A DNA stretch of 41,474 nucleotides from an uncultured Bacteroidota bacterium (GTDB lineage Bacteria; Bacteroidota; Bacteroidia; Bacteroidales; 4484-276), in contig CAJATL010000013.1 of the NCBI GenBank assembly GCA_903944895.1, forward strand, positions 1 through 41,474, given 5' to 3'. Each line of letters begins with the position of its first letter. Positions within the stretch are counted from its first letter, which is position 1. The position numbers were made by a program, and so were the translations under genes. The notes beneath the pieces are model-generated. The model was given only the letters and a program-made list of their open reading frames with translations. It searched no databases and was not told where the DNA came from. Below, in pieces: positions 8,821-27,600 of this stretch.

Positions 8821-9387
8821 TGATAATTCGGCCCCCGATAGCTATCGGGGCGGCAATTAAAAGAATGGAAAATTGGATTGTTGGAATAATGGAAAAATGG
8901 AAAAATGGAATAGAGGAAGATTGGAATATCGAATTTTGATTGATTGAAATTGAAGCGTCGTTTAACATTAAAATTTGCTTCATTTTTCGGATGAATTTGG
9001 GATAACATAGGTCTAAGGTTCGTCTAAGGTAGCTCTAAGCTAAGTCTAAGCAGAATTTGATGAAAACAGAGACATAAAATTTGGAAAAATGGAAGGGTGG
9101 AATAATTCGACAATTTGATAATTCGATCCCCGATAGCTATCGGGGCGGCAATTGGAAGAATGGAAAAATGGATTGTTGGAATAATGGAAAAATGGAATAG
9201 TGGAAGATTGGAATATCGAATTTTGGTTGATTGTAATTGAAGCTACGTTTAACATTAAAATTTGCTTCATTTTTCAAATGAATTTGGGACAACATAGGTT
9301 TAAGGTTCGTCTAAGGTAGCTCTAAGCTAAGTCTAAGCAGAATTTGATGAAAACAGAGACATAAAATTTGGAAAAATGGAAGGGTGG
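8801..9387. repeat. Two tandem copies of a ~290-bp intergenic repeat
   Basis: 8801-9100 and 9096-9387 align almost throughout. Each begins GGTGGAATAATTCGACAATT, then holds the perfect palindrome CCCCGATAGCTATCGGGG (8833-8850 and 9128-9145), a GGAAAAATGG-type stretch, and a segment ending in GATGAAAACAGAGACATAAA. Each also holds four 11-base units based on GTCTAAGGTTC (9011-9054 and 9298-9341). The copies differ at scattered bases, so the duplication is not brand new. No coding capacity is credible. Confidence 0.9.
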
Positions 9388-9399
9388 AAGATTGGAAGA

Positions 9400-10290
9400 T
9401 TGAAGAAAATAATCACTAAGACACAGAGGGCACTGAGAAGGCACTAAGGAGGAAGAATGGAAGGATGGGGATATTGGAAGAAATGGTTTAAAAATATTAA
9501 GTAAAATAAATTCTACTAACCGGGGAAAAATATTCAATCCTCCTGAAACCCTTGATTTCTTTAACCTCTAAGAGGTATTCTTAAATCGGGGGTTTACATT
9601 TTTCTACAATACTTTATCGCCTACGGCGAATTCCGCGTAGCGGATAAAGTATTGTAGAATAATGAGATGTGATAGTCTTAAAAATTCCCCGTAGGGGATA
9701 AACAATTTAGTCGGTCACCAGTGTAAAATGAAATTACAAGCTTTAAAATGTGCAATTTTTTGGTCGTGAATGGGTGTAATAAAATTGATGCTTGCTGTTG
9801 TGTTTTTTGACCGGAAAATGGACAAAAAAGAGGCTGTTTTTTTTCATTTATCTTTCGCTCATCCTATACTCATCCTATACTCAAGATTCGCTGTTCATTC
9901 GCTCAAGATTTTAAGGTGGTTTATTGGTGGTTTTGGTGAGAAATTGGCACTATTTTTTGATGGCAATTGTGCAATTTTGGGGAGGAAGGGAAGAAGGGAA
10001 AAATGGTGTCTTTTAATATTTGATTTACTTTCTTTTGTCTTGACACAAAAGAAAGTAACAAAGAAAAAGTCAAGACTTCATAAAAATTTCCTGTTTTCTA
10101 CGGGTCGGCATAGCCACGCGATACAAGCCGCGCCACCACACTGGCCAACGTTGGCTTCTGTATCGCTTTAAGAGGCCCTTTCGATAAGCCTTCCCTCGAA
10201 AACAATGGAAATTTTTATAAGGTCATCTGGTGGCGGGAGAAATAATCATAGTAATGGCAATCTGGTGGTGTGGTGGTTTTGGTGCAGCCA
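9400..10290. other. Gene-free stretch with dispersed Bacteroidota intergenic motifs
   Basis: No convincing gene. It contains a 'CACTAAGACACAGAGGGCACTGAG' type motif near 9413-9440 and a long perfect hairpin at 9602-9659 (listed separately). The palindrome-bearing motif CTTTTGTCTTGACACAAAAG (about 10033-10052) is followed by AAAGTAACAAAGAAAAAG. A further hairpin has arms GCGATACA (10118-10125) and TGTATCGC (10159-10166) and an inner palindrome GCCAACGTTGGC (10144-10155). The open frame at 9770-10171 (plus) translates across these motifs and looks spurious. Confidence 0.65.
9602..9659. repeat. 58-bp hairpin with perfect 17-bp arms
   Basis: Arms TTCTACAATACTTTATC (9602-9618) and GATAAAGTATTGTAGAA (9643-9659) are exact reverse complements. 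The inside is also largely self-complementary (CGCCTACG against CGTAGCG). No gene end is adjacent, so it is more likely a small palindromic mobile or REP-type element than a terminator. Confidence 0.8.
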
Positions 10291-13348: not shown

Positions 13349-14722
13349 ATGACCGAAAAAGACATCCAAAAATACATTTGGGATCATAAGAATGATTGGA
13401 AAAGCTTGCTGGTTAATGCCCGTTTCCCAACGAATGAAAAATCCGATAATCCTACGCACTTAACCCCAGCCGAGGCAATGTTTAATCTGGTAGTAGAAAA
13501 AACCAGGATTCTTTACAACTCGCTTGAATATTTGGAATTTTTTGGTTGTGAGGTTCCGCTAAGGAAAAAGGGAAAATCTACAATAAGAGCCGATTTTTTG
13601 GGGATTATGGGCGGTGGAAATGGCATAGCTATTATTGAACTTAAAAAAGGAAAAAAAACCGAAAGGCAATCATTTACCGAGCTCCTGGCATATAGTGGTC
13701 ATTTACGGACTGTATTTGCCCCAATGGGCAAAATGGATATTGTGTATGTTATAATTGCTCCAATGAAGGAACGTATTGTGAGGGAGGCAATTGTAAATTG
13801 TCTTCTCTATGAAAATATGAGGACTATTGCGTTGGTACCGGAATTTGAAAATGATGATGTGAGTACTTTAAAATTGAATCCATGGATTCCTTCATTCAAA
13901 GAAATCGAGCAACTTACTAACAGTTGCTTTTCCGAAAGAAACTTTGATGTTTTTAAAATAACGTGGGAAGCTTTAGAGGGAGAATGGAGTCCGGAAAAAG
14001 GAGTAAAAAATCCCGATGAGCACATGATTGACAGAATGAATGAGGTTTCAGCTATTGCTGCGCAAGTAATGGAAGCAAAAGGAATTAACGGATTTGTGTT
14101 TTCAACACAAAGTTTTTCCGAAACAAGGGAATTGTTACCATTGGCAAATGGTTTGGTTTTATGCGGTTTAAATCCCTATAAAGCAACAAAAAACCGCTTT
14201 CTTAAAACGGAACGGAACCTTTCGGTCAAAGAAGCTGATAATATCGACATTGTAGAGGTAAACCTGCTTGATATCATTCCTGAACTTGAAAAAAGCGCAA
14301 AAAATGAAAATATTGAAACTAATTTTCTCGGTTTTTTATCATTAGCATGGGACAACGAAATGACAGGTATTGGATTTGACATTGTCCAGACACTTACAAA
14401 AAGCCTAGATCAAGAGAGTATTATTACTGATTATGGGGGCTTTAACTGGGACGATTATCAATCAAAATTCCTTGAGGATATTTACTGTCACAATTTTAAA
14501 ATGAGGCTAACAGGTTTGTTAAGAAAATTGTTTTTTGAATACGCAAAATTAGACTACGATTACATCCGTGAATATGGGCATGAAGAACACTTTCAATATG
14601 CAGATGGTGATATTCCAAACTTTCTTGTTGATATATCAAACAGCCAATTCTTTGTAAGAAATTTTATCAGAAGGCTTTTTAATCCCTATTATGAATTTGA
14701 AGATGATTTTGATTTGAGCTAA
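13349..14722 (+). CDS. PD-(D/E)XK nuclease-like protein
   Basis: A 457-residue protein. The N-terminal 125 residues hold a PD-(D/E)XK core: 'IRADFLG' (Asp82), 'GIAIIELKKGK' (Glu97-x-Lys99), then a helix with 'ERQSFTELLAYSGHLR' (Gln107, Tyr115), the spacing and the trailing Q..Y helix seen in nucleases of this fold. Residues 126-457 are unlike anything I can name. They include the beta-alpha pieces 'INGFVFSTQSFSETRELLPLANGLVLCGL' and an acidic C-terminus ('EFEDDFDLS'). It probably cuts DNA or RNA, or binds it if inactive; the substrate is unknown. It follows the anchored protein by 70 bp and ends 75 bp from the convergent FSMP operon, which makes a defence or conflict role worth testing. Confidence 0.75.
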   Translation: MTEKDIQKYIWDHKNDWKSLLVNARFPTNEKSDNPTHLTPAEAMFNLVVEKTRILYNSLEYLEFFGCEVPLRKKGKSTIRADFLGIMGGGNGIAIIELKKGKKTERQSFTELLAYSGHLRTVFAPMGKMDIVYVIIAPMKERIVREAIVNCLLYENMRTIALVPEFENDDVSTLKLNPWIPSFKEIEQLTNSCFSERNFDVFKITWEALEGEWSPEKGVKNPDEHMIDRMNEVSAIAAQVMEAKGINGFVFSTQSFSETRELLPLANGLVLCGLNPYKATKNRFLKTERNLSVKEADNIDIVEVNLLDIIPELEKSAKNENIETNFLGFLSLAWDNEMTGIGFDIVQTLTKSLDQESIITDYGGFNWDDYQSKFLEDIYCHNFKMRLTGLLRKLFFEYAKLDYDYIREYGHEEHFQYADGDIPNFLVDISNSQFFVRNFIRRLFNPYYEFEDDFDLS

Positions 14723-14797: not shown

Positions 14798-17251
14798 TTA
14801 TTCAAAAGCCTTTATTTCTTCAAACAAAGATTTTACACAACGAACCGAAAATCCAAAACCTTTATCGATGTTAGAACGGTTTATGAAAGCGTTGTCATGG
14901 TAAAGTCTCCTTGTCCAGGCGTTTGGTGAGGATGACTCAGTGGAACTCCAAAAGTCGGCATAGGTGCCAATGTCTCCGAATGAGCCAAAAGTACTACGCC
15001 AACCTCCTGGAAAAGCTGAGAATTTAAATTCATTATTTCCGCTTTCACTAGGATCCCATCTGGTTAGGCTTTTCATTTTTTTTCCTGCAATTTCATCGCC
15101 CCCTAAAAAACGAACTAATTCAACCCATTCATAATCTGATGGTACATGCCACCCCTCCGGTGCCAGCCCACGTGGATCATTTACAGCATGCCAGTTGTAC
15201 AATTTACAGTAAATCATTCCATTTTCAGGATCATTGTTGTGATTGCACCAGGCCGGCTTACCTTCTTCACCTGCTCTATTCCACTCCTCATTTGTTTTAA
15301 CTTCCGGAATTTGTTCGCCATTGCGGAAATGGCTAACATCCAAGTTTCTTTTCATCCATACTTGACTACCAATAGTAATACATTGCATTTCAACATTAGG
15401 AGTAACTACTACACTACTATTATTAATGATCTCTGTTCTGTGATCTTCATCCTCTCTAAGCGTTCTTGAAAATCCAAATCTTTGAAACTGAGGATTGCCA
15501 TTAAAAAGAACCAATTCCCCAGTCTTTAGATTAATTACCTTCTGTTGATCATTTTTCATTTCCAAGTAAGCATCAACTGCTTGATTTCTATTATCTTCTG
15601 TAAAACTGGAAGATTTTATCAAATTTGCTCCGATAATAGCGATTTGATTAATTGGTGCTGTTTTAAGTTCGTCAAATAAAATAATCTCTTGATTTTCTAG
15701 AATTACCTTATCACTTAGATCCTTGCAAATACAAGCATTTGGATATTTTTTAATAACTTCTTCAACTCTTGCAACAGTTACTCCTAGAGGTACGTCAACC
15801 CAAACCATTCTTTCTTCTACAACCGATTTATGTTCTTTTAAATTATTTTCCTCATTGCCATTTGTTAAATGATTTGTGGGATTAAAGTTTAAATAAGATT
15901 CATAGATTACCTGTTTCAATTTAGCAGTTAAAATTTTAGGATTAAAAGGATGTTGGTCAACTTTTTCTACGGTTACTTCTGAGCGTAAGATTTTGATATA
16001 CCTCAAACAAGGCACACTAAAACCAAGCTCCTTTTTCTCGATGGCCCAGGATATATTGGCATCCCTGCCATGCAGGCTTCGTGTTCGGGAACCCCAAGAA
16101 GGCTTATCGGTAGAATAACACCAGCTACCAACAAAGCCAATTTGGTTGAAACTACCATCGTCGTGACGGTAGCCGCCCGGAAGGGCAGAGAATTCTGCTT
16201 CATCTGTACCATTTCCTGAATATTTCCACCCAGTTTTGCTTTTCAATTTTTCTCCTGCAATTTCCTTACCTCCCAAAAAATCTATTAATTCAGTCCACTC
16301 ATCATCACTGGGTAAATGCCATCCAACCGGCGCTATTCCTCTTGAGTCATTTACGGCAAACCAGTTGTAAAGCTTACCGTAAATCTTACCATTTTCAGGA
16401 TTATTATCGTAATAACACCAGGCAGGTTTTCCTTCTTCACCAGCCTTTTTCCATTCCTCATCTGTTTTGGCTTCGGGTATCAGATCACCATTGCAAAAAT
16501 GGATGACATTCAGGTTTCTTTTCATCCAAACCTGGTTACCGATTTTTACACTTTCATACGGCTTGTGATGCCAATCAGTTGCACAAATAATGGTTTTGTG
16601 ATTTTTTTGTGACTTGCCAATAGCTAATGACGGATAAAAGTTCAATATTCTAATCTTTTTAACAAGAAGTTCAGAAACAGTTGATTCAGGTATGTGCAAT
16701 GATTCTGCGAATTGGAATAACAATAGGGCTTCGTCTTTTGTATGTTTACCGTCAGAAAAGGCAAGTTCAATCTGTTGATTTAGGATTTCCATGCTATCAA
16801 CACTTACATGGTTTAGCTTTTCCATAGGAGTTCCTTCAAACCATCCCAAAGCAAACAAGAAACAATCAACCACATAATCGGCATTATGGTTAAAGGCATT
16901 GTTGTTTCTGAAGTTTTCCTTCAGGGCTGTTATTTTCAGGGTTCTTACAGCATAGGTATCGCTTTGCATATCAAGCAGTTTTGATCCAATACCGTCGTCC
17001 ACCGCCTGACGGAAAATCCTTTGGTGTTTTCGTTCTGCATTGGGCATTAGGTCGGCAATTAATCCCCTAAGCCGAGGTTGGCCAAGCGTATTCCTGCCGA
17101 ATTGCTCTACGATTTCAGATAAAACCTGGTATGGTTCTTTAGGTTTACCAGAAGCTTTTACCTCAAAAATTGGTTCCAAACAAAAAGGGCATTTTGTAAT
17201 CACCACGTTTTTTGGTGGTGTCCATTCGGCGTTACAGGCTTTACATTTCAT
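14798..17251 (-). CDS. Zinc-ribbon/TerB-like protein with two FSMP domains
   Basis: An 817-residue protein with, in order: a zinc ribbon (Cys3, Cys6, Cys21, Cys24); a conserved helical domain (about 38-140, 'LRGLIADLMPNAERKHQRIFRQAV'); a TerB-like helical unit (152-203, 'AFSDGKHTKDEALLLFQFAESL'); a first FSMP domain (about 228-420, from 'YESVKIGNQVWMKRNL' to 'GFSVPCLR'); a linker domain (about 430-610) seen in neither paralogue; and a second FSMP domain (about 620-808, ending 'GFGFSVRCVK'). No signal peptide, so cytoplasmic. FSMP domains adopt a formylglycine-generating-enzyme/C-type-lectin-like fold, and most are non-catalytic binding modules. Last gene of the kinase-vWA-phosphatase operon, 61 bp after its paralogue. 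The first FSMP copy has drifted (VPC replaces VRC), so it is probably the older or relaxed one. Confidence 0.88.
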   Translation of the reverse strand: MKCKACNAEWTPPKNVVITKCPFCLEPIFEVKASGKPKEPYQVLSEIVEQFGRNTLGQPRLRGLIADLMPNAERKHQRIFRQAVDDGIGSKLLDMQSDTYAVRTLKITALKENFRNNNAFNHNADYVVDCFLFALGWFEGTPMEKLNHVSVDSMEILNQQIELAFSDGKHTKDEALLLFQFAESLHIPESTVSELLVKKIRILNFYPSLAIGKSQKNHKTIICATDWHHKPYESVKIGNQVWMKRNLNVIHFCNGDLIPEAKTDEEWKKAGEEGKPAWCYYDNNPENGKIYGKLYNWFAVNDSRGIAPVGWHLPSDDEWTELIDFLGGKEIAGEKLKSKTGWKYSGNGTDEAEFSALPGGYRHDDGSFNQIGFVGSWCYSTDKPSWGSRTRSLHGRDANISWAIEKKELGFSVPCLRYIKILRSEVTVEKVDQHPFNPKILTAKLKQVIYESYLNFNPTNHLTNGNEENNLKEHKSVVEERMVWVDVPLGVTVARVEEVIKKYPNACICKDLSDKVILENQEIILFDELKTAPINQIAIIGANLIKSSSFTEDNRNQAVDAYLEMKNDQQKVINLKTGELVLFNGNPQFQRFGFSRTLREDEDHRTEIINNSSVVVTPNVEMQCITIGSQVWMKRNLDVSHFRNGEQIPEVKTNEEWNRAGEEGKPAWCNHNNDPENGMIYCKLYNWHAVNDPRGLAPEGWHVPSDYEWVELVRFLGGDEIAGKKMKSLTRWDPSESGNNEFKFSAFPGGWRSTFGSFGDIGTYADFWSSTESSSPNAWTRRLYHDNAFINRSNIDKGFGFSVRCVKSLFEEIKAFE

Positions 17252-17312
17252 TCTGTTTTATATTTTAAAACACAATTTTTCAATTTTTACATTAGCTGAT
17301 TAACCTAAAATC

Positions 17313-18851
17313 CTATAACTGCCTTTTCAAACAGCGTACACTATATCCCCAAGCTTTACCTGCACTATAAATTCCTTCAGAATCATTTCTCCATGTAAGT
17401 GAAAGACAAGAAGCAAGTAATTTTGAGTGTTCTTTTTTTGACCACCAATATCCATCCCATCCTTTTTCAAAGAAGTAACCGTTGGCATTGCACCAACCCC
17501 CTGGTAATGCTGTAAAACCACTTTCATTAGTGGCTGTTCCATCCGGCCAACTTACCTTATCCTTCATTTTTATTATTGCAACCTTATCTCCTCCTAAAAA
17601 AACCATCAATCTTGTCCACTCATCTTCACCCGGCAAATACCATTCTTCTGGTGCTAACCCGCGTGGATCGTTTACAGCGAACCAATTATACAATTTACCG
17701 TAAATCTTCCCATTTTCAGATTCATAATTATAATAGCACCATGCAGGTGTATATTTTTTACCAGCTCTTTGCCACTCTTTGATTGTTTTGGCTTCAGGTA
17801 TTGGATCCCCATTTTGGAAATGGCTTACGTCGAGGTTTCTTTTCATCCATACCTGGTTGCCGATTTTAACGGATTCATAAGTTATGCCTGATTTTCTTTT
17901 TTCTTCTAAAGGAGTACTTTTGGTGATGGTATCATTTTCAGTTGCAAATATTTCACCTTTTTTCACCGTTTTCCCTGTTTTTGTAACACCATCATTTTGT
18001 GCTATCCACACAGTATAATCGTGTCCAACAATCAATCCATCTTTTTCATCATTTTCATCAGCTTTATAAGATATGGTTTTCCACCTGACTCGTGCCTCTG
18101 ATGTGGTGCTTTTGGGCTTTTCATTTGAAGAAAAGTGTTTCTCAATTATTTCACTGGATTTTTTTGGTATCCAATCACTCGAAACAATAATGCTTCGTGT
18201 GATATTCAGATCATCGTTTAACGATGCATCAGGAACCATACCTTTTCTCTTAGTATGTTCCATTATTAGATCTATTGTATCCTTTTCCGGAAGATTTAGA
18301 TTATCCGATAACTTGAAAATATGTTTAGACTCATCTTTTGTTAGTAGATTATCTGTAAATGCCATTTCAACTGCTTGTTTCAGGATTTCCAAATTATATA
18401 ACTGAGCCTGGTTACGAATGTCTTTTGGTTCAGCATCCTGCAAACCCAAAGCATACAGGTAACTATCGATTACATAATCGGCAGTATGGTTAAAGGCATT
18501 GTTGTTTCTGAAGTTTTCCTTTAGGGCTGCTATTTTCAGGGTTCTTACGGCAAGAGTATCGCTATGCATTTCCAGCAATTTAGTTCCTACGCCATCATCA
18601 ACAGCCTGTTTCAAAATGCGGAGGTACTTCTTCTCGGTGTTGGGCATCAGGTCTGATATCAGGCCTCTGAGCCGCGTTTCGCCCAGAATTTCGCGGCCAA
18701 ACTGCTGCACAATGCTGTGCAACAATTCATGCAAAGCGGCTTCCTTGCTTGCAAACGTAGCTGCAATAAGCGCTTCCCCACAAAAAGGACAATGGTTAAT
18801 GGTGCGGCCTGCCGGCGGTGTCCATTCTGCTTTACATTTGGAGCAATTCAC
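17313..18851 (-). CDS. Zinc-ribbon/TerB-like/FSMP-domain protein (GTG start)
   Basis: A 512-residue paralogue of its two neighbours. Zinc ribbon (Cys3, Cys6, Cys21, Cys24), helical domain (about 36-140), TerB-like unit (about 152-200, 'AFTDNLLTKDESKHIFKLSDNL'), a linker unique to this copy (about 205-320, rich in Lys, Thr, Asp) and one FSMP domain (about 326-510). The GTG start is chosen because it aligns the CSKC ribbon exactly with the ATG-started paralogue at 20225. The C-terminal variable segment departs strongly from the other copies ('SCLSLTWRNDSEGIYSAG') while the flanks 'LPGGW' and 'GYSVRCL' are kept. Part of the six-gene minus-strand operon, 63 bp after the previous gene. Likely a cytoplasmic sensor or adaptor; the ligand is unknown. 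Confidence 0.88.
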   Translation of the reverse strand: MNCSKCKAEWTPPAGRTINHCPFCGEALIAATFASKEAALHELLHSIVQQFGREILGETRLRGLISDLMPNTEKKYLRILKQAVDDGVGTKLLEMHSDTLAVRTLKIAALKENFRNNNAFNHTADYVIDSYLYALGLQDAEPKDIRNQAQLYNLEILKQAVEMAFTDNLLTKDESKHIFKLSDNLNLPEKDTIDLIMEHTKRKGMVPDASLNDDLNITRSIIVSSDWIPKKSSEIIEKHFSSNEKPKSTTSEARVRWKTISYKADENDEKDGLIVGHDYTVWIAQNDGVTKTGKTVKKGEIFATENDTITKSTPLEEKRKSGITYESVKIGNQVWMKRNLDVSHFQNGDPIPEAKTIKEWQRAGKKYTPAWCYYNYESENGKIYGKLYNWFAVNDPRGLAPEEWYLPGEDEWTRLMVFLGGDKVAIIKMKDKVSWPDGTATNESGFTALPGGWCNANGYFFEKGWDGYWWSKKEHSKLLASCLSLTWRNDSEGIYSAGKAWGYSVRCLKRQL

Positions 18852-18914
18852 GTTTTATCTTTTTGTTCTTGTTCTCGTTGAAAAATCTGATTTTGAAAAA
18901 CCATTTTAAATAAT

Positions 18915-20225
18915 CTAATAGAAAAATAGGCTTATAGTCGCATCCCTCAAACAACGAACTGAAAAACCATAACCCTTATCAAAGTAGTAACGGTAAACAT
19001 TGGCGTAGTTATAGAGCAGGTAGCGGTACCACGCATTTGTTGCCGAGCTCTCGGTAGAACTCCAGAAGTCGCCGCCGTTGCCGAGGCCGTCGAACGTCCC
19101 ATCGGTGTAGCGGTAACCGCCCGGAAGGCCTGAAAAGTCACTACTATTTGTTGTGTCTTGACTAGAGCTGTTCCAGTTAATTGCATCTGTGGTTTTCATT
19201 TTGCCGCCTGCCACTTCCCCTCCTCCCAAATAATTCATCAATTTGCTCCATTCCGCATCACTTGGCACATGCCATCCCTCCGGCGCAAGGCCCCGTGGGT
19301 CATTTACCGCATACCAGTTATAAAGTCTTCCGTAAATCTTACCATTTTCAGGGTCATTGTTATAGAAGCACCAAGCCGGTTTCCCATCTTTTACGGCTTT
19401 CATCCATTCTTCATCTGTTTTGACTTCGGGTATAGGGTCGCCATTGCGGAAATTGCTAATATCAAGGTTTTGTTTCATCCAGACCTGGTCGCCAATTTTA
19501 ACGGATTCATACTTATCAACAACTGTGTCATTAGCCTTCGAAATCCAATTCCGAGATATGATAATCTCCTTTATTGTGCTGTTGGAGTTGTCAAATGGTT
19601 TATCTGCCTTAAATTGGTTCTTTTTTAAATTTTGCACAATTAAGCCCGTAGCATCCTGTTCGGAAATACTGAGTGTTTCAGCCATAGCGAAAATGGATTT
19701 TGCTTCTTCTTTGGTGAACCTGCCATCGGAGAAGGCCATTTGGACTGTATGCTGCAAAATGTTCAGGTTGTTAACCTGTACAAAGTTTTGTTCCTCTTTT
19801 GGAACATCATTTGTCCAGCCCAGGGCATATAATAAGCAATCTATCACATAATCGGCAGTATTGCTAAATCCGTGGTTGTTTTTCAAGTCTTCCTTCAGAA
19901 CGTTGATTTGCAATATACTGCCTGAGTTGTGATTTTTTATTAAACCCATTAATTTAGGGGCAATACTGTCACTCACGGCCTGCCTTAAAATATGGAGGTG
20001 CTTTCTTTCTGTATCGGGTTTAAAATCGGCTAAAAGGCCTATTAGCCTTGCTTCGCCCAGGATTTCCCGGCCAAACTGCTGCACAATGCTGCGCAACATT
20101 TCATGCAAAGCAGATTCCTTATTTGCAAACGTTGTTGCAACAAGCGCCTCCCCGCAAAAAGGGCAGTGGGTAATGGTACGTCCTGCCGGCGGTGTCCATT
20201 CAGCTTTACATTTGGAGCAATTCAT
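18915..20225 (-). CDS. Zinc-ribbon/TerB-like/FSMP-domain protein with Tyr-rich variable C-terminus
   Basis: A 436-residue protein and the shortest of the three paralogues, so it shows the minimal architecture: zinc ribbon (Cys3, Cys6, Cys21, Cys24), helical domain (about 36-140), TerB-like unit (about 150-200, 'AFSDGRFTKEEAKSIFAMAETL') and one FSMP domain (about 238-428). The C-terminal segment between 'TNAW' and 'GFSVRC' carries eight tyrosines in about 22 residues ('YRYLLYNYANVYRYYFDKGY'). In the same segment the other copies have Thr, Arg, His, Ser or Asp. Such a surface suggests a binding face. It starts 39 bp after the PP2C gene in the same operon. Function beyond a ligand-binding, phosphorylation-linked role is unknown. 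Confidence 0.88.
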   Translation of the reverse strand: MNCSKCKAEWTPPAGRTITHCPFCGEALVATTFANKESALHEMLRSIVQQFGREILGEARLIGLLADFKPDTERKHLHILRQAVSDSIAPKLMGLIKNHNSGSILQINVLKEDLKNNHGFSNTADYVIDCLLYALGWTNDVPKEEQNFVQVNNLNILQHTVQMAFSDGRFTKEEAKSIFAMAETLSISEQDATGLIVQNLKKNQFKADKPFDNSNSTIKEIIISRNWISKANDTVVDKYESVKIGDQVWMKQNLDISNFRNGDPIPEVKTDEEWMKAVKDGKPAWCFYNNDPENGKIYGRLYNWYAVNDPRGLAPEGWHVPSDAEWSKLMNYLGGGEVAGGKMKTTDAINWNSSSQDTTNSSDFSGLPGGYRYTDGTFDGLGNGGDFWSSTESSATNAWYRYLLYNYANVYRYYFDKGYGFSVRCLRDATISLFFY

Positions 20226-20264
20226 TTGTCAAGATTAAAAAACTATAATCGGTTTTTCTAAACA

Positions 20265-21710
20265 CTATTCACTATCGGGCTTTGTATTGATTTCCTGTTT
20301 TTCTTCGCACTCCGCCACAGGAAGTGCGGCAACTTCTTCCGGTTTTTCATTTTCCAGGTTTTTCACATCGGCTTGCAAGTCGTTGTATTCGCTGTTCAGT
20401 TCACGAATCTTTTTTTGCAGGTCATCCAGCAGTTTTTGCTCTTTTTCCAAGCCCGCGCGCGTTTTATCAATATCCTGCCCGGTATTAAGGATTTCAACTT
20501 CGATTTTATCCATCTCACTTTTCAGATTTGCATGCCTTCTTTGGGCCTCGGCTTTTCTTTTCTCAGCCTTCAGGAACTCTTTTTCTGCGCGGCTCAGCTC
20601 CGTTTCGGATTCACGGGTATCTTTCTTTTTTTTGTCGAAAACTGATTTTTTACTGGTTATCTGATCATTTAACTGCGAAGAGGTTTTATGCTTTTCTTCC
20701 AGCGCTTTTTCGATCTCAGCAATCTCTTTTTCGGTTTTTTCGATATCTCTGTTGACGAAAATTGGCAAACGGTTTTTTGCCCAATCAAGATCAATCCAAC
20801 CTGCCAGTGACACATCATCACGGGTAACACCCTGCTCACTCAGCTCAGGCAGCATTTCACGGATCTCTGCAACGGTGGCATCGTAGCCTTTACGGGCAAA
20901 ACTTTTGATCACATTTTCATATAACCCGGTCAAGAGAGGCACCGAAAACTCATCTATTGTTCCATAAGCTCCATCCATACCATCGGAACCGATAAACAGG
21001 GCAAAAGGTGTTTTATCATTACCATAGCAGTACCTGAAATTATCGAGGGCAGCGCTATCGCAGATGGAGGTAGTGGTATTGCCGATGCATTGGTCATCCC
21101 AGGGTACAGGTTCCCATCCTTTGACTTCGCCATCGAAAGCTATGCACTTGCCGTCACCTAATTGAAAAGCAAACCAGTAGTTGGGTGTTTGGGTAAAAGC
21201 AATCAATGTACAACCGTAGGCCATTTCAATTTCGCTTCCTGATTGATACGAGCTTATGTATGCATCAGGTACCAGTAAGTCTTTCATTTGGTCAGGAGTG
21301 GGAGTATCATTTTCCCAGTCGTGATGCACAGCTTCGTTCCAAGCAGCAATGATGGCCGAAAATACCCGGCGAAAGGCATCATCCTGAAGTGTAAACTTTC
21401 GAACATTCTGCTGTTGAATTTCGGTTTTTCGAGACGGAATAGCGGTAAATGGCGCAGCAAGCAGTTGTTTATCCAGCTGCCTGATGAAATCGCGAATGGT
21501 GTCGAGGGCAATTTTTACTAAAAATCTGGAACCCCTGTCGCTTCTGAAATATTGTTTACTCCCGTGTCCGTCGCTCACAGCGGCAATAAAAATTCCATTT
21601 TCCCTATCCTCAAAACTCTCTGTCGCATCCTGGCATGGGATGTTTTTTATTCGGTGGCTTTCACCTAAGGCAAATACATGGTAAATCCGTATATTATTCA
21701 TATTGGACAT
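20265..21710 (-). CDS. PP2C-family protein phosphatase with C-terminal coiled coil
   Basis: A 481-residue protein. Residues 1-310 form a PP2C-type serine/threonine phosphatase: 'CQDA' (Gln27-Asp28), 'AVSDGHGSK' (Asp47-Gly-His-Gly, metal-binding), 'AFQLGDGKCIAFDG', 'IGSDGMDGAYG' and 'VTRDDVSLAGWI' (the late Asp pair). All metal ligands seem present, so it should be active and manganese/magnesium-dependent. Residues about 320-465 are a long Lys/Glu-rich coiled coil, and the tail is acidic. It lies 21 bp after the vWA gene and 39 bp before the first FSMP gene. In TerY-P triads PP2C, vWA and kinase occur together and are thought to form a reversible phosphorylation switch. The coiled coil may tether the enzyme to a partner (inference). 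Confidence 0.92.
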   Translation of the reverse strand: MSNMNNIRIYHVFALGESHRIKNIPCQDATESFEDRENGIFIAAVSDGHGSKQYFRSDRGSRFLVKIALDTIRDFIRQLDKQLLAAPFTAIPSRKTEIQQQNVRKFTLQDDAFRRVFSAIIAAWNEAVHHDWENDTPTPDQMKDLLVPDAYISSYQSGSEIEMAYGCTLIAFTQTPNYWFAFQLGDGKCIAFDGEVKGWEPVPWDDQCIGNTTTSICDSAALDNFRYCYGNDKTPFALFIGSDGMDGAYGTIDEFSVPLLTGLYENVIKSFARKGYDATVAEIREMLPELSEQGVTRDDVSLAGWIDLDWAKNRLPIFVNRDIEKTEKEIAEIEKALEEKHKTSSQLNDQITSKKSVFDKKKKDTRESETELSRAEKEFLKAEKRKAEAQRRHANLKSEMDKIEVEILNTGQDIDKTRAGLEKEQKLLDDLQKKIRELNSEYNDLQADVKNLENEKPEEVAALPVAECEEKQEINTKPDSE

Positions 21711-21731
21711 TCAAAGGGTTGAGAAGAATAT

Positions 21732-22466
21732 TTAATCCCAATCATCATTTGGGTCGGGTGCCGGTTTTGCCGCTGAATAGGCACCCTCGGTTTCTTCCAC
21801 GTCCTTTTTAAGCTGTTCAACCACTTGCCCCTGTTTATCCTTGTTGCCGACTGTGCTGCTTTGGCTGCCAATTTGGGAAGCGGTAACCGAAACGGTTCTG
21901 ATGAGTTTTTTCAATGCCTCGATATTATGTACTTCAACCACAGCTTCCATGTTGCCGGTGAATTCTTTTATCAACTCCTCGTTGGCATCATTACCAATAG
22001 CAATGGCAATTTTAATTGCAGCCTTGTACCACCGGTTTTCTTTTAACTTTTTTAGTCCTCCCGGGAAGTCATCTGTCGGCTCTCCATCGGTAAGCAGGAT
22101 AAGCACCGGAGCAAAAGCGCCGGTATCTGTTTTCATAAAAGTATCCCTCGAAAGCTTTCGGCCTAATTCGATGCATGCCTCTCCAAGATCGGTAAGCCCG
22201 CTTGCTTCTCTGTCCTGCCACCGGAATTCTGATGCTGTTTTGGGCTCATCGTAAATCCAGCGGCAACCGCTTGAAAATTCGAGTAAGGCAATTTTGATTT
22301 CTGCATCGGCATTATTTGCTGAAATTTCATCCAGCATCGGCAACACTTCGCGTATTGCCTGATTTACTGCGCCAATTTTACTACCTGTCATACTGCCGGA
22401 GGTGTCAACAATGAAAAACAACACCATTGTTCTTCTTGGCACCGGCGCTGAGTCTAATATTCCCAT
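21732..22466 (-). CDS. TerY-like von Willebrand factor A domain protein
   Basis: A 244-residue protein. The vWA fold occupies residues 10-190 with a complete metal-ion-dependent adhesion site: 'DTSGSM' (Asp21, Ser23, Ser25), 'GLTDLG' (Thr92) and 'LTDGEPTDD' (Asp127). The opening 'RRTMVLFFIVDTSGSMTGSKI' is characteristic of TerY-type cytoplasmic vWA proteins. A flexible acidic tail (about 205-244, ending NDDWD) follows. No signal peptide. It lies between the kinase (49 bp) and the PP2C phosphatase (21 bp), which is the arrangement of TerY-P triads known from comparative genomics of tellurite-resistance (Ter) systems. Probably a metal-dependent scaffold binding phosphorylated or FSMP partners. 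Confidence 0.93.
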   Translation of the reverse strand: MGILDSAPVPRRTMVLFFIVDTSGSMTGSKIGAVNQAIREVLPMLDEISANNADAEIKIALLEFSSGCRWIYDEPKTASEFRWQDREASGLTDLGEACIELGRKLSRDTFMKTDTGAFAPVLILLTDGEPTDDFPGGLKKLKENRWYKAAIKIAIAIGNDANEELIKEFTGNMEAVVEVHNIEALKKLIRTVSVTASQIGSQSSTVGNKDKQGQVVEQLKKDVEETEGAYSAAKPAPDPNDDWD

Positions 22467-22515
22467 GATTTCTGTTTTATTGGTTTAAACTATGATTTGA
22501 TATTTATTTTAATTT

Positions 22516-23781
22516 TCAGATGATTTCCCCTTTTTCGTGTTGTGTGAAATAAATTTTCAGCCCCTTTTCAAGTGGTAAAAACTCAGTTGGATTGATGTCT
22601 TTTAATTTTCCATCAGGTGTTTCGACGATCCATTTGGCTTGTGCAAGATTTTGCATTGCCAATATTTCGGCATTTTTTTTACTGACACGAACTACTGCAA
22701 CCGGTTCTTTGATTTTACCAAGCAAAACTATTTTTTTTGGCGTTAGGGCTAATATTCCATGATCGTTTGTATGCAGCCGATATTTCACTTCAACAGGACG
22801 CCCACAATTGATGCAGGTTGAAACAAAATCCGATCCTGCAAAGGTTTCGTTTTCGCAACTGCTGCATACCACCAGTTGATTGCGTACCTGCCTGATTATT
22901 TTTTCCCACTTCGATTCCATCATTCGTTGTGTGGGATTTTTGATCAAATCCTGGCTAAAAGCTTCGATAAATGCATCCTGCAAAACCTTTGTAAATAAAG
23001 GCCATCTTCTGATCACGTTATGGTGTACACCTCTCACCGGCAAATTCGTCCTGTCGTTTTTATCCAAAATAAAAATTGCTTCACTGCCAAAATGTTTCCG
23101 CTCATTTTCTTCGGTCATGCAAGGGCAACTCACTACTTTTTTCCCTTCAAAGGGATGATTTCCGTAAAAGAGCATAAACAGGATAACAGCCAGGGAGAAA
23201 TAGTCGCTGTATTTATCAGGTTTTTGTCCGGCGATAATTTCGCTGGCCATATAGCGTGCTTTGCCAAGAATGCCTGTGTTTTGCCCCTGAGCGGTTACAT
23301 TGTCGTTATCACAAATCAACACATCGCCAGTATGAGGGTTAATGAAAAAATTGCCGTCGTTAATATCCTGATAACTGAAACCCCTGAGGTGCAAATGGTA
23401 AAAACCATCGCAAATTTGCAATGCCGCCTCTATCATGGCGCTGATGGACTGAAATTTCACTTTAGCGAGCAAGTAATCTCCAAATTCAAAGAAATCTTTT
23501 TTGCGTAATTCCATTGCATATCCGAAGCTACCATTTTGTTTGGTTGTAAGCATTAACGGCCAAAGGAATGCTTTTGAGGGAGCGCCGTGTTGAATGTTTT
23601 CCTTGAGGTTGTTGTAAAAATCGTCGGAATATTTTTGTGTGTACCACTTCAAAGCATAATTATGTCCTTGGTACTCGGATAAATAAACAATTCCCTGGCC
23701 ACCGCGTCCAATTTCCTTTAGTATTTTTAATTTCTCTCCATTTGTGAGGTCGATTTTTAATCCTGGCTCTAATTCTGCCAT
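22516..23781 (-). CDS. Serine/threonine kinase with C-terminal zinc ribbon and FHA-like domain
   Basis: A 421-residue protein. The kinase domain spans about 15-300: glycine loop 'GRGGQG' (25-30), Lys45 in 'ALKW', catalytic loop 'YQDINDGNF' (Asp139, Asn144), metal site 'CDNDN' (158-161, in place of DFG) and 'ARYMASEII' as the activation-segment end. The key catalytic residues are kept, so it is probably active. Residues 306-326 are a CxxC..CxxC zinc ribbon. Residues about 331-421 are beta-rich and resemble an FHA domain ('KYRLHTNDHGILALTPKK'), which would bind phosphothreonine. First gene of the operon. The kinase + vWA + PP2C set marks a TerY-P triad. Confidence 0.92.
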   Translation of the reverse strand: MAELEPGLKIDLTNGEKLKILKEIGRGGQGIVYLSEYQGHNYALKWYTQKYSDDFYNNLKENIQHGAPSKAFLWPLMLTTKQNGSFGYAMELRKKDFFEFGDYLLAKVKFQSISAMIEAALQICDGFYHLHLRGFSYQDINDGNFFINPHTGDVLICDNDNVTAQGQNTGILGKARYMASEIIAGQKPDKYSDYFSLAVILFMLFYGNHPFEGKKVVSCPCMTEENERKHFGSEAIFILDKNDRTNLPVRGVHHNVIRRWPLFTKVLQDAFIEAFSQDLIKNPTQRMMESKWEKIIRQVRNQLVVCSSCENETFAGSDFVSTCINCGRPVEVKYRLHTNDHGILALTPKKIVLLGKIKEPVAVVRVSKKNAEILAMQNLAQAKWIVETPDGKLKDINPTEFLPLEKGLKIYFTQHEKGEII

Positions 23782-24370: not shown

Positions 24371-24377
24371 TAGTAAT

Positions 24378-24476
24378 ATTGAAAATACACTTTTCATGTG
24401 TTTTTGTAATATAGAAAAAACACTTTTCCCATGTTTCTGTAACATAGGAAATACACTTTTCGTAGTTTTTTGTAAA
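24378..24476. repeat. Three tandem 33-bp units
   Basis: Units at 24378-24410, 24411-24443 and 24444-24476 share the frame AtxGaAAAxACACTTTTCx..TTxxTGTAA, and the ACACTTTTC core recurs exactly every 33 bases (24387, 24420, 24453). Because 33 is a multiple of three, a minus-strand open frame (24270-24500) translates it as an 11-residue repeat (YITKTHEKCIF type), but nothing else supports a gene. Confidence 0.75.
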
Positions 24477-24532
24477 ATCTGTTTTCAAAATTATCAGCAA
24501 AACATCTGAAGTTAAACCCAGTCCCTTTTGTC

Positions 24533-24603
24533 TTTTGTGATTTGTCTTTTGTGATTTGTCTTTTGATAATTGTTTTTTGATAATTGTTTTTTGTGATTTA
24601 TTT
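24533..24603. repeat. Short T-rich tandem repeats past the HTCS stop
   Basis: Units TTTGTCTTTTGTGA repeat about three times and pass into TTTTTTGATAATTG repeats, ending at the stop codon of the minus-strand regulator. Simple-sequence slippage is the likeliest origin. Confidence 0.65.
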
Positions 24604-27600
24604 TTAATCTTTCCTTTTCAACCGGTAGTCGGAAGGAGAGCAGCCAAAGGTTTTGTTGAAAAGATCGTAAAAATGTGTGCGGCTGCTAAAACCTGTCTGA
24701 TCAATAATTTCGCTCACGGTTAACGAAGTCGAACCGAGTAAAACCGATGCCTTCCTTACCCTTCGCTGGTTGATCAGCCCATGCGGCGTGGTTCCAAGTA
24801 CTGAGCGGGTTTTGTTGTAAAGTGACGATTTGCTGATGGCGAAGCGTTCGCTCAGTTTATCAGCCGAAAGGGTTTCTTCGTCAATGTTTTCGTCAATATA
24901 ACTGAGCATTTTCTGAAAGAATGGGTCAGGGATTTCCTTGATCAGCAAAACGCTTTCGTCCTGGCTACCAAATTTCTTACGAATATTCTGCCGCAAGGAC
25001 AGAAGTTTTTCGATCCTTATTTTGAGATGATCGGGATGAAACGGTTTTGGGATGTACGAATCTGCGCCAGCCTGCAGGCCTTTTATGCGGTCTTCGATTT
25101 CGACTTTTGCGGTGAGCAGGATTAGAGGCAGGTGGCTGGTGTCGAAGTTTTCCCTGATTTTGCAGCAAAGTTCGATGCCATCCATTTCGGGCATCATGAT
25201 ATCCGAAACCACCAGATCAATTTTTTGTTGCTCCAGAAACTGCCAGGCTTCGGTTCCATTCAGCGCAAAGCAAAGATTATAAAACGGCCTTAGCATATCG
25301 CCCAATAGCGACAGGATTTCCCGATCGTCGTCAACCAAAAGAATGGTTTGCTTTTCGGTAACTGCCTCGTAGGAATTTAAAATACCATCATTATTCGATT
25401 CGTCAATAAAGGTCATTTCGTTGCGCTCGTCGGTTTTTTCGGCGACCAAACCTGTCTGATTTTCCTGATGAATATCGGGGAACCGGCAAATAAAACGGGT
25501 TCCCTGGTTTGGTTTGCTTTCGAAAACAATGGTACCCCTAAGTAATTCGACAATGCCTTTGGTAACTGCCAGCCCTAGCCCTGTTGACCGGTAGCCCGGG
25601 AAACTTCCTTTTTTTACCGCAGAAGAAATGCCAAAAGGTTCGAAAACCTTGTCTCGTAATTCGGGATTTATGCCGATTCCGTTGTCCTCCACCTCGGTAA
25701 TAAATTCGTTTTCACCAAACGAAATCTTCACATGAACAAAACCGCCCGGTTTGTTGTATTTTATGGCATTCGAAACCAGGTTTGTAAGAATTCGCTGGTA
25801 TTTATCGGCATCGGTGTAAACAGCATTGTTTTCAATGTCACAAAAAACTTCACACAAAATTTCCCGCTTTTGAGCCAGCAATTCAAGGTCAGAAATTACT
25901 TCCCTAACCAGCACCTCAGGGTTTACTTTGCTAATGTTGAGCGGCTCCTTGCCTTTCTCCAATTTTCGGAACTGAATAATTTCGAGTACAAGTTTCTGCA
26001 ACTTGATGCTGTTGTTATAAACTTTGAGTAGGCGGGGATTTTCGCTGATGGTTTTAGTTTCTTCGATGAGGGCATGAATGTGTGAAGTTATCAGCGTAAG
26101 CGGCGTCCGGAACTCATGCGCCACATTTGTAAAGAACTCGAGTTTATAGTTTTGAAGTTCTTTTTCTGTTTGCTGCTTAAATTCGATCAGCGCAGCCTCC
26201 TTTTTCCGCGAATCTTTCCGGATGTACGATCTGATTATCAGCAGTTGAATCCCAATAAAAAGTAAAATATAGACCCCAATCGCCCAGATTGTTTTCCAAA
26301 AAGGCGGTTTGATAACGATTTCGACGGATTTAATCTGATCCGACCAGTTACCGCTTTCGTCGCTAACCCGCAACTGTAAAGTATAGTTGCCGGTTTCGAG
26401 GTTGGTAAAACTGATGGCTTGTCCTTGTAGATTGACTACCCAGTTATTGTCGAAATTTAATAACCGGTACGAAATCCGGTGTCGCTCTTTCCCCCAGTAG
26501 GCAAGCGGCGAGACGTAAAATGTAAGCGCGTTTTGGTCGTAATTCAATACGATGCGGTCCTGAAGGTTCATCCGGCTGGTAAGAACGCTGCCTTCGGTGA
26601 TCTCGACAACCTGGTTTTTGATGTACAAATCGTTGATGGCGATAGGTGGGAAGAAGGATGAAAACTTTATTTCGCGGGTTTGGATAATGTCAATTCCCAT
26701 GGTGCCGCCAACATACAACATGCCGGTCGTTTGGTCGAAATAGGAAGCCCCGTCGCTGTATTCAAAATTGATCAGCCCGTCGTTAACAGTAAAGTTTTTT
26801 ACGGTCAGATTTTTCGGATCAACACACGAAAGCCCCTGATTTGTTGTTGCCCAGAGGTTTCCGGATTTGTCTATCTGCATGGTATGAATTGAAGTATTTG
26901 ATAAATCTTCCTGCAGATTCCATCCGGTAATTTTTGCCGGGCCATTAGTTTCGGGCTTTAACGAAAATATCCCCGAACTGCTTCCAACCCAGATATTCAT
27001 CGCCTGATCGGTAAACAAGGCAAGGATATCATCGTTTTTTATCTGACCTGGATGCGTATTTGAATTGAACTGCGAAAGCACGCGCTTTGTAATTGTGTTG
27101 TATTGGTAAACCCCGAAACCACGTGTGCCAATCCAGATAATGCCTGGCTTTTCCTGAGTGATTGCGTAAACGATTTGTTTTTGCTGCCCGCCCGAAATGT
27201 TGTTTTTATCCAAAATTACCTGCTCGCAATACACCGGATTTGAAGGCTGGTTTTTATCAAATTCGATCATCATAACGCCAAAACCGCTGGTGCCCAGATA
27301 CAAACGCTGATCGCTGTCCTCAAGGATGTTGTAAACCGAGCCAAAACCCGGGCAATGGACGTCTTTAAAATCTGCAGGGAAGTTTCTGATTTTCCTAAAA
27401 TCCGCCGAAATTATGTCAATTCCTCCGCCATCGGTGCCAGCCCAGATTGTGCCATCATCCCGCTCAAGGAACGAAAGCACCGAGTTGTTGCTCAGACCGT
27501 CTTTTACAGATATTTGTCGTACGTGGTTGCCTTTCGAATCAAAAACGTCGATGCCTCCTCCCTTTGTCCCGATAAGAAACTGGTTTTTTTGAGTGACGAG

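What the first reader, a model, noticed from the sequence alone, without database searches (positions are those of the whole stretch)
14798..23781. TerY-P phosphorylation triad fused by operon to three zinc-ribbon/TerB-like/FSMP proteins
Seen: six closely spaced minus-strand genes (gaps 21-63 bp) in the order kinase, vWA, PP2C, then three paralogues each with zinc ribbon, helical domain, TerB-like unit and FSMP domain. Known: kinase + TerY-type vWA + PP2C form the TerY-P triad noted in comparative work on Ter stress systems, and FGE/lectin-fold domains serve as antigen-type sensors in some bacterial conflict systems. Inference: the FSMP proteins are the sensors or clients of the triad, with TerB-like and zinc-ribbon parts docking to it. 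I know of no characterised system with this composition.
Basis: partly seen in the sequence, partly recalled or inferred. Interest (0 to 1): 0.85.

Follow-up and report, generated by a model that had tools for sequence, protein, structure and literature searches.

The report
Swappable-sensor operon on kinase–phosphatase switch
A bacterial operon joins a known kinase–vWA–phosphatase switch, a kind shown elsewhere to protect against phages, to three proteins that share an unnamed helical 'plug' domain; in related operons the same plug carries many different recognition or nuclease domains, so it looks like an exchangeable-sensor stress or immune system.

Summary
Kinase (C-terminal zinc ribbon), TerY-type vWA and PP2C make a TerY-P triad with conserved active sites. 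The three FISUMP proteins share zinc ribbon, helical domain ('HEL', my name), TerB-like segment and FISUMP; the last has two. Scanning genomes with the kinase gave 80 related loci. HEL, unmatched in Pfam, NCBIfam and PADLOC, is the constant part: 51 of 66 sufficiently sequenced triads have a HEL gene on their strand, mostly next to PP2C. In 26 genomes and 2 plasmids chosen for the kinase, 49 of 51 HEL matches lie within 20 kb of it on its strand; neither HEL nor kinase was found in 394 other genomes sampled from the phylum. HEL is fused to LRR, WG, Sel1, ankyrin, FGE, FISUMP, FtsK, MORN, PIN and helicase-nuclease domains, and partners changed repeatedly on the kinase tree. FISUMP is thus one of many cartridges; the TerB-like part is rare (5 of 84). 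Some relatives sit with BREX or restriction genes, others with TerD. Best reading: cytosolic, exchangeable recognition subunits plugged by HEL into a phospho-switch acting in phage defence or stress. Function is inferred. The founding TerY-P paper was not readable, so novelty is provisional.

The parts
22516..23781 (-). Ser/Thr kinase (residues ~10-300) with zinc ribbon (C306, C309, C323, C326) and beta-rich C-terminal domain (~334-420)
   Evidence: Pfam PF00069 E 1.4e-19; K45, D139, N144, D158, C309, C323 invariant in 41 kinases, C306 and C326 in 90% or more; AF2 mean pLDDT 91.9; kinase fold VIA Z 22.0, rmsd 2.8, 256 aligned
21732..22466 (-). TerY-type vWA protein, MIDAS D21-x-S23-x-S25 ... 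T92 ... D127 (motif recalled)
   Evidence: PF00092 E 1.2e-10; these residues at 97-100% in 79 vWAs; about 31% identical to vWA proteins of enterobacterial plasmids, one of them beside TerD
20265..21710 (-). PP2C phosphatase (residues ~16-300) with C-terminal coiled coil (~315-460)
   Evidence: PF13672 E 5.2e-30; D28, D47-GHG, D186, D243, D299 at 100% in 71 PP2Cs (role as metal ligands recalled); SMC-like coiled-coil matches at 319-459
18915..20225 (-). F1: zinc ribbon - HEL - TerB-like - FISUMP protein, no signal-like N-terminus
19815..20108 (-). HEL domain of F1 (residues 40-137)
   Evidence: own HMM E 9.6e-26; helical, pLDDT blocks 86-97
19617..19784 (-). TerB-like helical segment of F1 (residues ~148-203)
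   Evidence: Pfam TerB E 0.003, below cut-off; own profile finds it in F1-F3, L048, L102
18945..19502 (-). FISUMP domain of F1
   Evidence: PF09603 E 7e-50
17313..18851 (-). F2: zinc ribbon - HEL - TerB-like - insert - FISUMP protein (GTG start)
18441..18734 (-). HEL domain of F2 (residues 40-137)
   Evidence: own HMM E 1.7e-25
17325..17870 (-). FISUMP domain of F2
   Evidence: E 2.6e-37
14798..17251 (-). F3: zinc ribbon - HEL - TerB-like - FISUMP - linker region - FISUMP protein
16841..17134 (-). HEL domain of F3 (residues 40-137)
   Evidence: own HMM E 2.4e-23
16001..16549 (-). first FISUMP domain of F3
   Evidence: E 4.8e-43
14831..15379 (-). second FISUMP domain of F3
   Evidence: E 1.2e-44

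Best explanation
The operon is a TerY-P-type phospho-switch with plug-in recognition subunits. Shown by sequence: kinase, vWA and PP2C with conserved catalytic and metal-site residues, and three apparently cytosolic proteins joined to them by gene order and by a shared ~100-residue helical domain (HEL) that, in the samples searched, is found almost only beside such triads. Inferred: HEL docks each protein onto the triad (most likely on the vWA); the FISUMP domain binds a foreign or damaged protein or glycan in the cytoplasm; docking or binding tips the kinase/phosphatase balance; the kinase then phosphorylates host or invader proteins and stops growth or phage replication, while PP2C resets the switch. 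In related operons the recognition domain is exchanged (LRR, WG, Sel1, ankyrin, FGE), and in a few the HEL protein itself carries a nuclease, so HEL works as a general adaptor of the switch. I rate HEL as a triad-specific adaptor at about 0.9, recognition by the FISUMP part at about 0.6, and anti-phage or anti-invader defence as the purpose at about 0.5.
For: HEL-triad linkage: of 66 triads with 1.5 kb or more after PP2C, 50 have a HEL gene on the same strand and one more, L083, was missed by my overlap rule; in 41 it is the next ORF of 100 aa or more, median gap 26 nt. 49 of 51 HEL matches in 26 genomes and 2 plasmids lie within 20 kb and on the strand of the triad kinase. HEL (E up to 1e-6) and kinase (E up to 1e-60) each in 0 of 394 other genomes of a phylum sample. 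Among 72,556 plasmids HEL queries hit only the two triad plasmids. Exchangeable partners: first 25 of 53 families shown: LRR_5 14, WG 6, Sel1 5, FISUMP 4, FGE 4, Ank_2 3, TPR_8 3, FtsK_SpoIIIE 2 of 84; PIN+Ank, DUF4011-helicase-MTES_1575 nuclease, MORN, weak RES; on the kinase tree 12 partner labels, 'other' included, need 22 changes, FGE at least 3 and LRR at least 3. A vWA-HEL fusion in L097. Cytosolic redeployment: 16 of 16 other FISUMP proteins of this genome with a readable start have a hydrophobic signal-like stretch, the window's three start with a zinc ribbon (crude hydropathy test). Defence setting of some relatives: BREX PglX, PglZ and BrxL directly upstream of a triad with HEL and HEL-FGE genes in L165; PglZ and BrxL before the L068 triad (no HEL there); a type IIG restriction enzyme before the L164 triad with HEL. 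A TerY-P system put alone into P. aeruginosa PAO1 was active against Autographiviridae phages (PMC10889362, passages). The kinase's best PADLOC matches are PD-T4-6 and mad6, tied at E 1.4e-18.
Against: No defence gene was recognised in the window operon: PADLOC gave no hit for F1-F3, the vWA or the two plus-strand neighbours, and only coiled-coil matches for PP2C; there is no obvious effector besides the kinase. Some relatives carry Ter genes (TerD in L108, PRTase_2/TRSP and AIM24 in L104), which fits a stress response as well. 15 of 66 triads have no HEL by my profile, among them the BREX-linked L068 and, by eye, L080, L081 and L114; some have another gene there, such as DnaK in L091. So HEL is not obligatory and most BREX neighbours do not coincide with HEL. 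The kinase-based sampling favours HEL-triad pairs. No ligand, docking site or phosphorylation was tested. FISUMP was not modelled well (pLDDT blocks 32-71).
Confidence: 0.5

Rival explanations
1. A Ter-type chemical or envelope stress response: the triad senses metal, redox or surface damage, and the HEL proteins are scaffolds or clients that deliver the signal; phages are not the target.
For: A Lachnospiraceae-type relative carries TerD (PF02342, E 6.5e-73) just upstream of the kinase (L108) and another PRTase_2/TRSP and AIM24 genes downstream (L104); TerY_C metal-binding proteins stand just before the kinase in L045 and, one HEL gene further, in L057; zinc ribbons in kinase and some HEL proteins; the window's genome has a separate four-TerD cluster.
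Against: TerD in the window's genome lies only on another contig, and L048 shows none by eye; neighbours in other relatives are BREX, restriction and Dpd- or Zorya-like genes; a plain TerY-P triad protects against phages.
Confidence: 0.28
2. The HEL proteins are effectors or substrates, not sensors: the triad senses (through vWA or zinc ribbon), and HEL marks the proteins that the kinase switches on or assembles.
For: Some HEL partners are enzymes: FtsK-like ATPase, helicase-nuclease and PIN domains. CoCoNuT systems pair TerY-P with nucleases (PMC11090510, passages).
Against: Most recognised partners are binding or repeat domains (LRR, WG, Sel1, Ank, TPR, MORN, FISUMP, FGE), although FGE-type domains can be enzymes and 30 of 84 HEL proteins got no label; FISUMP has no known enzymatic activity (recalled).
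Confidence: 0.17
3. The FISUMP proteins are antigen sensors actively diversified by a retroelement (DGR), like the vWA/MoxR systems of Thiohalocapsa.
For: FISUMP (9 proteins) and FGE (42) are listed among DGR variable-protein domains (PMC4159848, passages); the C-terminal loop of the window's four FISUMP domains is 17-25% identical in 5 of 6 pairs (53% in F1 against the second of F3) while the rest is 56-64% identical.
Against: No reverse transcriptase (PF00078) in the window's genome, although the search rang in 3 of 14 controls; the loop is also variable in other FISUMP pairs of this genome (31 domains; mean identity 0.28-0.33, sd 0.06-0.08, at any core identity), so five window pairs are only one to two sd lower.
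Confidence: 0.03

Closest known systems
TerY-P triad (Anantharaman et al. 2012, recalled and not read; described in PMC11090510, passages read)
   Same: TerY-like vWA, PP2C phosphatase and Ser/Thr kinase with C-terminal zinc ribbon, adjacent on one strand
   Different: Here the order is kinase-vWA-PP2C and the operon goes on with HEL-domain proteins; in the fetched stretches of three other triad-type loci (Klebsiella, Nostoc and P. putida plasmids) no HEL was found
TerY-P-like anti-phage system (Gao et al. 2020 as cited in PMC11090510; tested in P. aeruginosa, PMC10889362, passages read)
   Same: kinase, vWA and PP2C
   Different: stand-alone three-gene system, no HEL-type genes mentioned in the passages I read; in the Gao type the kinase carries an OB-fold instead of a zinc ribbon
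CoCoNuT type II/III-A systems with TerY-P (PMC11090510, passages)
   Same: triad placed in a restriction-type operon
   Different: no McrB-like GTPase, helicase or HEPN protein among the nine window proteins scanned
vWA-MoxR ternary systems and GAP1-N2 systems with EAD adaptors (Kaur et al. 2020, PMC7159879, passages)
   Same: small, mostly helical adaptor domain fused to many different domains; a kinase-zinc ribbon-beta domain protein with PP2C and vWA genes is reported in 10% of GAP1-N2 neighbourhoods
   Different: no MoxR ATPase or GAP1 among the nine window proteins scanned; HEL matches no Pfam family; HEL repeats in partner genes, and a copy in the core was seen only once, as a vWA-HEL fusion (L097)
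DGR-diversified CLec antigen sensors (Dore et al. 2024, PMC10907252, passages)
   Same: CLec-type domain as putative sensor in a vWA conflict system (that FISUMP has the CLec fold is recalled)
   Different: no RT in this genome; kinase/phosphatase switch instead of MoxR or NACHT
PD-T4-6 and MADS mad6 kinases (PADLOC)
   Same: kinase domain, both E 1.4e-18
   Different: PD-T4-6 is a single-gene system (recalled); here vWA, PP2C and HEL genes go with the kinase

Membership tests
TerY-P triad | Ser/Thr kinase fused at C-terminus to a zinc ribbon | tested here: met
   PF00069; C306, C309, C323, C326 conserved in 90-100% of 41 kinases
TerY-P triad | TerY-like vWA domain protein with MIDAS | tested here: met
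   PF00092; about 31% identity to vWA proteins of enterobacterial plasmids, in the one opened next to TerD and a TerY-C protein; MIDAS residues conserved
TerY-P triad | adjacent PP2C-like phosphatase with intact metal ligands | tested here: met
   PF13672; D28, D47, D243, D299 conserved in 71
TerY-P triad | TerY_C metal-binding protein nearby (accessory) | tested here: inconclusive
   no match in the window's genome, but the control genomes were silent too; present in L045 and L057
Ter stress system proper | TerD genes in the same cluster | tested here: not met
   four TerD matches in the genome, all on contig C304, none in the window
known anti-phage defence system (PADLOC models) | hits for F1-F3 and for the triad as a system | tested here: not met
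   no hit for F1-F3 or vWA; PP2C only coiled-coil matches; kinase only kinase models of other systems. A 2023 library; no TerY-P model hit
DGR target protein | reverse transcriptase and template repeat in the genome | tested here: not met
   RVT_1: 0 matches in G000, control rings in 3 of 14; template repeat itself not searched; genome is 96.4% complete in 424 contigs
FISUMP (PF09603/TIGR02145) family | full-length profile match over curated cut-off | tested here: met
TerB family | Pfam TerB over gathering score | tested here: not met
   18.3 bits against cut-off 24.4, only in F1
FHA domain (kinase C-terminus) | profile or fold match | tested here: inconclusive
   no Pfam match; no PDB sequence match; fold comparison rows covered residues 8-313 only
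EAD / death-like adaptor domains | profile or fold match of HEL | tested here: inconclusive
   no Pfam, NCBIfam or PADLOC family matches more than one of 46 HEL rows; whether all EADs are in Pfam was not checked; fold search gave no confident match

The most novel reading that the evidence does not exclude
HEL defines an undescribed bacterial immune-receptor architecture: cytosolic receptors in which one adaptor domain plugs interchangeable ligand-recognition domains (LRR, ankyrin, WG, Sel1, C-lectin-type FISUMP/FGE) into a shared kinase-vWA-phosphatase hub, with nuclease and FtsK-like members as effectors; a phospho-signalling counterpart of NLR/STAND receptors, at times built into a BREX operon.
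Probability: 0.33. Interest if true: 0.87.

Novelty: new variant of a known kind. Interest (0 to 1): 0.68.

Why it matters
TerY-P triads are known to act against phages, but in the passages I could read it is not said what they sense (a metal-sensing switch is hypothesised). If HEL proteins are their receptors, each operon names its own sensor domain, and swapping one HEL protein for another should change specificity: a directly testable open question.

Tried and rejected
DGR reading: searched RVT_1 in the window's genome and in four genomes (L048, L102, L066, L069), one plasmid (L045) and one virus record (L165) with HEL-FISUMP or HEL-FGE genes. RTs were found in L048's, L102's and L069's genomes, none in the other three. 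They were not typed. Loop variability: the window pairs dropped out through my duplicate filter and the background still held the window's own copies; the pairs were computed and the background redone without them. Five of six pairs are one to two sd below background, one far above; pairs are not independent and the two alignments differ, so I draw nothing from it.

Full-length N-module search: A2 found only the window's three genes at full length among 395 genomes (seven other genomes have short weak matches) and nothing in genome contigs. Relatives appeared only through the vWA and kinase.

PP2C as probe: 0 of 394 other genomes at E 1e-10, uninformative on neighbourhoods because the triad is rare in that sample. 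In some searches only the best four candidates per genome were scored, at most twelve.

Fold of HEL/TerB: Foldseek had no match at E 0.001 or below; VIA's best Z was 6.3 (3.6 A rmsd, 72 aligned) to a cullin winged helix for residues 147-230, a middling value, not used. PDB sequence search with HEL gave only designed proteins, with the N-module one match at E 0.84 and with F1 none.

Promoter and terminator scans gave no more than shuffles (25 against 24.8; 11 against 10.4), so single-transcript status rests on strand and spacing only.

Redundancy: of the 83 loci, L078/L079 and L110/L111 have (nearly) identical kinases, and L051/L054/L076, L053/L063 and L070/L075 pairs are 95% or more alike; counts are not corrected for this, except that the tree left out L079 (and L084).

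Literature: no paper in the held library holds TerY-P, TerB, vWA and PP2C together, nor PP2C, von Willebrand, kinase, leucine-rich repeat and antiphage; the whole-word search for at least four of PP2C, vWA, kinase, FGE, TerB, Sel1 gave three papers, of which I saw passages of one (Kaur 2020) and only listings of the other two. The founding Ter paper is not held, so I cannot say that HEL was never noted.

Full report
Observation. The six genes exist at the stated coordinates, all on the minus strand with gaps of 49, 21, 39, 63 and 61 nt. Pfam names the domains: Pkinase, VWA, PP2C_2 and Fib_succ_major (FISUMP), the last once in F1 and F2 and twice in F3. F1-F3 are paralogues; F2 and F3 are 52% and 48% identical to F1 in the alignment. 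Each starts with a two-CxxC zinc ribbon, then a helical domain (residues ~40-137), a TerB-like segment (~148-203) and FISUMP. AlphaFold gives residues 1-230 at pLDDT 72-97 in blocks of ten, save one block of 63, mostly helices behind the ribbon; FISUMP was modelled poorly, blocks 32-71.

The triad. [quoted passage not shown] vWA MIDAS residues are conserved at 97-100% in 79 vWAs and the listed PP2C aspartates at 100% in 71 PP2Cs (their roles are recalled). The vWA matches vWA proteins of enterobacterial plasmids at about 31% identity; in the one opened, the gene lies among TerD, TerY-C and PP2C genes. This is the TerY-P triad as defined in PMC11090510 (passages).

Finding the relatives. The FISUMP protein module gave no relatives on its own. 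tblastn of the vWA against plasmids gave a Prevotella plasmid (58.8%) and a Methylomonas plasmid (40.6%) as best hits. Both have the whole triad. In Methylomonas five genes behind PP2C share one helical domain with different remainders; in Prevotella BLASTP joins the window's helical domain to the N-termini of an FGE protein (E 1e-9), an FtsK-like protein (1e-4) and a protein that looks membrane-bound (1e-5). I call this domain HEL.

Scale. An iterated HEL profile finds 84 proteins in 57 of 83 loci (the 80, the window and the two plasmids). Of 70 loci with a complete triad, 66 have at least 1.5 kb after PP2C: 50 have a HEL gene on that strand, 49 of them downstream, and in 41 it is the very next ORF of 100 aa or more, median gap 26 nt. 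L083, scored as lacking HEL, has one that overlaps the PP2C ORF by 140 nt and was missed by my rule, so 51 of 66. Loci without HEL include some with another conserved gene there, DnaK in L091. A few loci are near-copies of each other.

Controls for linkage. HEL in 26 genomes and 2 plasmids chosen because they hold the kinase: 25 of 28 have it, 51 matches, and 49 of 51 lie within 20 kb of the kinase on the same strand; one exception lies 49 kb away on the same strand, one on another contig. Two of the 49 are halves of one domain. In 395 genomes of the window's phylum both HEL (E up to 1e-6) and kinase (E up to 1e-60) appear only in the window's own genome (first-look candidates capped at 12 and 4 per genome). 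In 72,556 plasmid records the window HEL hits only the Prevotella triad plasmid and the Methylomonas HEL only its own. The fetched stretches of three other triad-type loci (Klebsiella, Nostoc, P. putida plasmids) have no HEL. Caveat: the genomes were picked by the kinase, so HEL living elsewhere in unsampled phyla is not excluded. In virus contigs, of five kinase relatives three have vWA and PP2C, and two of these have HEL genes.

What HEL carries. Of 84 HEL proteins Pfam finds BspA-type LRR_5 in 14, WG repeats in 6, Sel1 in 5, FISUMP in 4, FGE in 4, ankyrin in 3, TPR_8 in 3, FtsK_SpoIIIE in 2, and single cases of DUF4011, AAA and MTES_1575 domains, ClpX zinc finger and Tim44 (25 of 53 families shown); Clp_N in one; PIN plus ankyrin, MORN and a weak RES match. 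With my own seed profiles 30 of 84 got no label and 14 share a conserved unnamed extension that I labelled YYP. HEL itself has no family: no Pfam, NCBIfam or PADLOC model matches more than one of 46 rows. On a quick tree of 80 kinases the window groups with L048 (FISUMP) and L049 (contig ends inside the triad) at SH-aLRT 100. Labelling 55 loci by their first recognised HEL partner, 12 labels ('other' included) need 22 changes against a minimum of 11 and a shuffled mean of 35.8, and 15 without 'other': partners are inherited for a while and then swapped. FGE and Sel1 are scattered. One gene in L097 fuses a vWA to HEL, a hint that HEL works with the vWA.

The window's version. Zinc ribbon-HEL-TerB-like followed by FISUMP or FGE is a local architecture: window x3, L048 (FISUMP) and L102 (FGE). 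The FISUMP domain belongs to a family that looks exported elsewhere in this genome: 51 FISUMP matches; of the best 30 loci, 16 other proteins with a readable start all have a hydrophobic signal-like stretch (crude hydropathy test, best value 1.95-3.74 against 1.35-1.56), 11 starts lay outside the fetched stretch (one of them the window's F3 again), and the window's three begin with the ribbon.

Setting. BREX PglX, PglZ and BrxL stand directly upstream of a triad with HEL and HEL-FGE genes in virus contig L165; PglZ and BrxL stand before the L068 triad, which has no HEL; a type IIG restriction enzyme precedes the L164 triad, which has HEL; L080 has a ZorD/DpdE-like helicase before, and L114 a DpdF-like one behind, triad genes without HEL. 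L080, L081 and L114 also show PglZ- and BrxL-like starts, by eye only. Others carry Ter genes: TerD in L108, PRTase_2/TRSP and AIM24 in L104. L108 also has an EssC/EccC-like ATPase, below the models' cut-offs, and L057 a His-Xaa-Ser cassette. A TerY-P system put into P. aeruginosa PAO1 acts against Autographiviridae (PMC10889362, passages); TerY-P islands with type VII-like and restriction genes are described in Helicobacter (PMC4978471, passages).

Mechanism. Shown by sequence: conserved enzymes, gene order, HEL linkage, partner exchange, no signal-like N-termini. Inferred: HEL docks, FISUMP recognises, kinase acts, PP2C resets. That the kinase itself is the output is suggested by its similarity to defence kinases (PD-T4-6 and mad6) and by the lack of another recognised effector in this operon; it is a guess. 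Metal sensing through the ribbons is the main rival.

Novelty. The triad is known; triads with DNA-processing genes are known. A dedicated adaptor domain with exchangeable recognition domains beside the triad was not found in the searches, or in the passages I saw of Kaur 2020, Dore 2024, the CoCoNuT paper and the BREX survey of 2026. Anantharaman et al. 2012 could not be read, so I file it as a new variant of a known kind.

Noticed in passing
window 13349-14722 (+): 457-aa protein convergent with F3, with a motif like a PD-(D/E)xK nuclease (RADFLGI...IAIIELKKGK, by eye, motif recalled); Pfam HSDR_N only at E 0.069, no PADLOC hit. Could be a neighbouring defence gene.
   Followed up: no
window 9000-9412 and 24373-24619: Short tandem repeats: 8-bp TGGAANNN units and a 98% identical 103-bp pair near 9000-9389; 14-bp and 33-bp units upstream of the kinase gene.
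   Followed up: no
L051, L057, L072 (Prevotella-type triad loci): A His-Xaa-Ser cassette sits in the triad operon, in L057 and L072 between HEL genes; in L057 HxsD, HxsB and HxsC pass the NCBIfam cut-offs and an HxsA-like protein does not; L051 and L072 by eye. A peptide-modifying system tied to a kinase switch.
   Followed up: partly
L090, L091, L094: Triads without HEL have another gene right behind PP2C; in L091 it is a DnaK-like Hsp70, the other two have genes of similar length and order.
   Followed up: partly
L175 (G000:C304:6000-21556): The window's genome has a separate cluster of four TerD proteins with a very large uncharacterised protein (1302 aa), and by eye a P-type ATPase, OmpA-like and LD-transpeptidase-like genes.
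   Followed up: no
window genome, PF09603 matches: 51 FISUMP domains in one genome; those with a readable start outside the window look exported; their C-terminal loop is only about 30% identical at any core identity.
   Followed up: partly
L097: Expanded triad locus (record titled uncultured proteobacterium) with two further genes matching the kinase profile, several vWAs, a vWA-HEL fusion and a kinase-vWA fusion.
   Followed up: partly
L115:3289-4722 and L053:13299-20207: HEL fused to PIN plus ankyrin, and HEL fused to a DUF4011 helicase with MTES_1575 restriction nuclease: candidate effectors of the same switch.
   Followed up: partly
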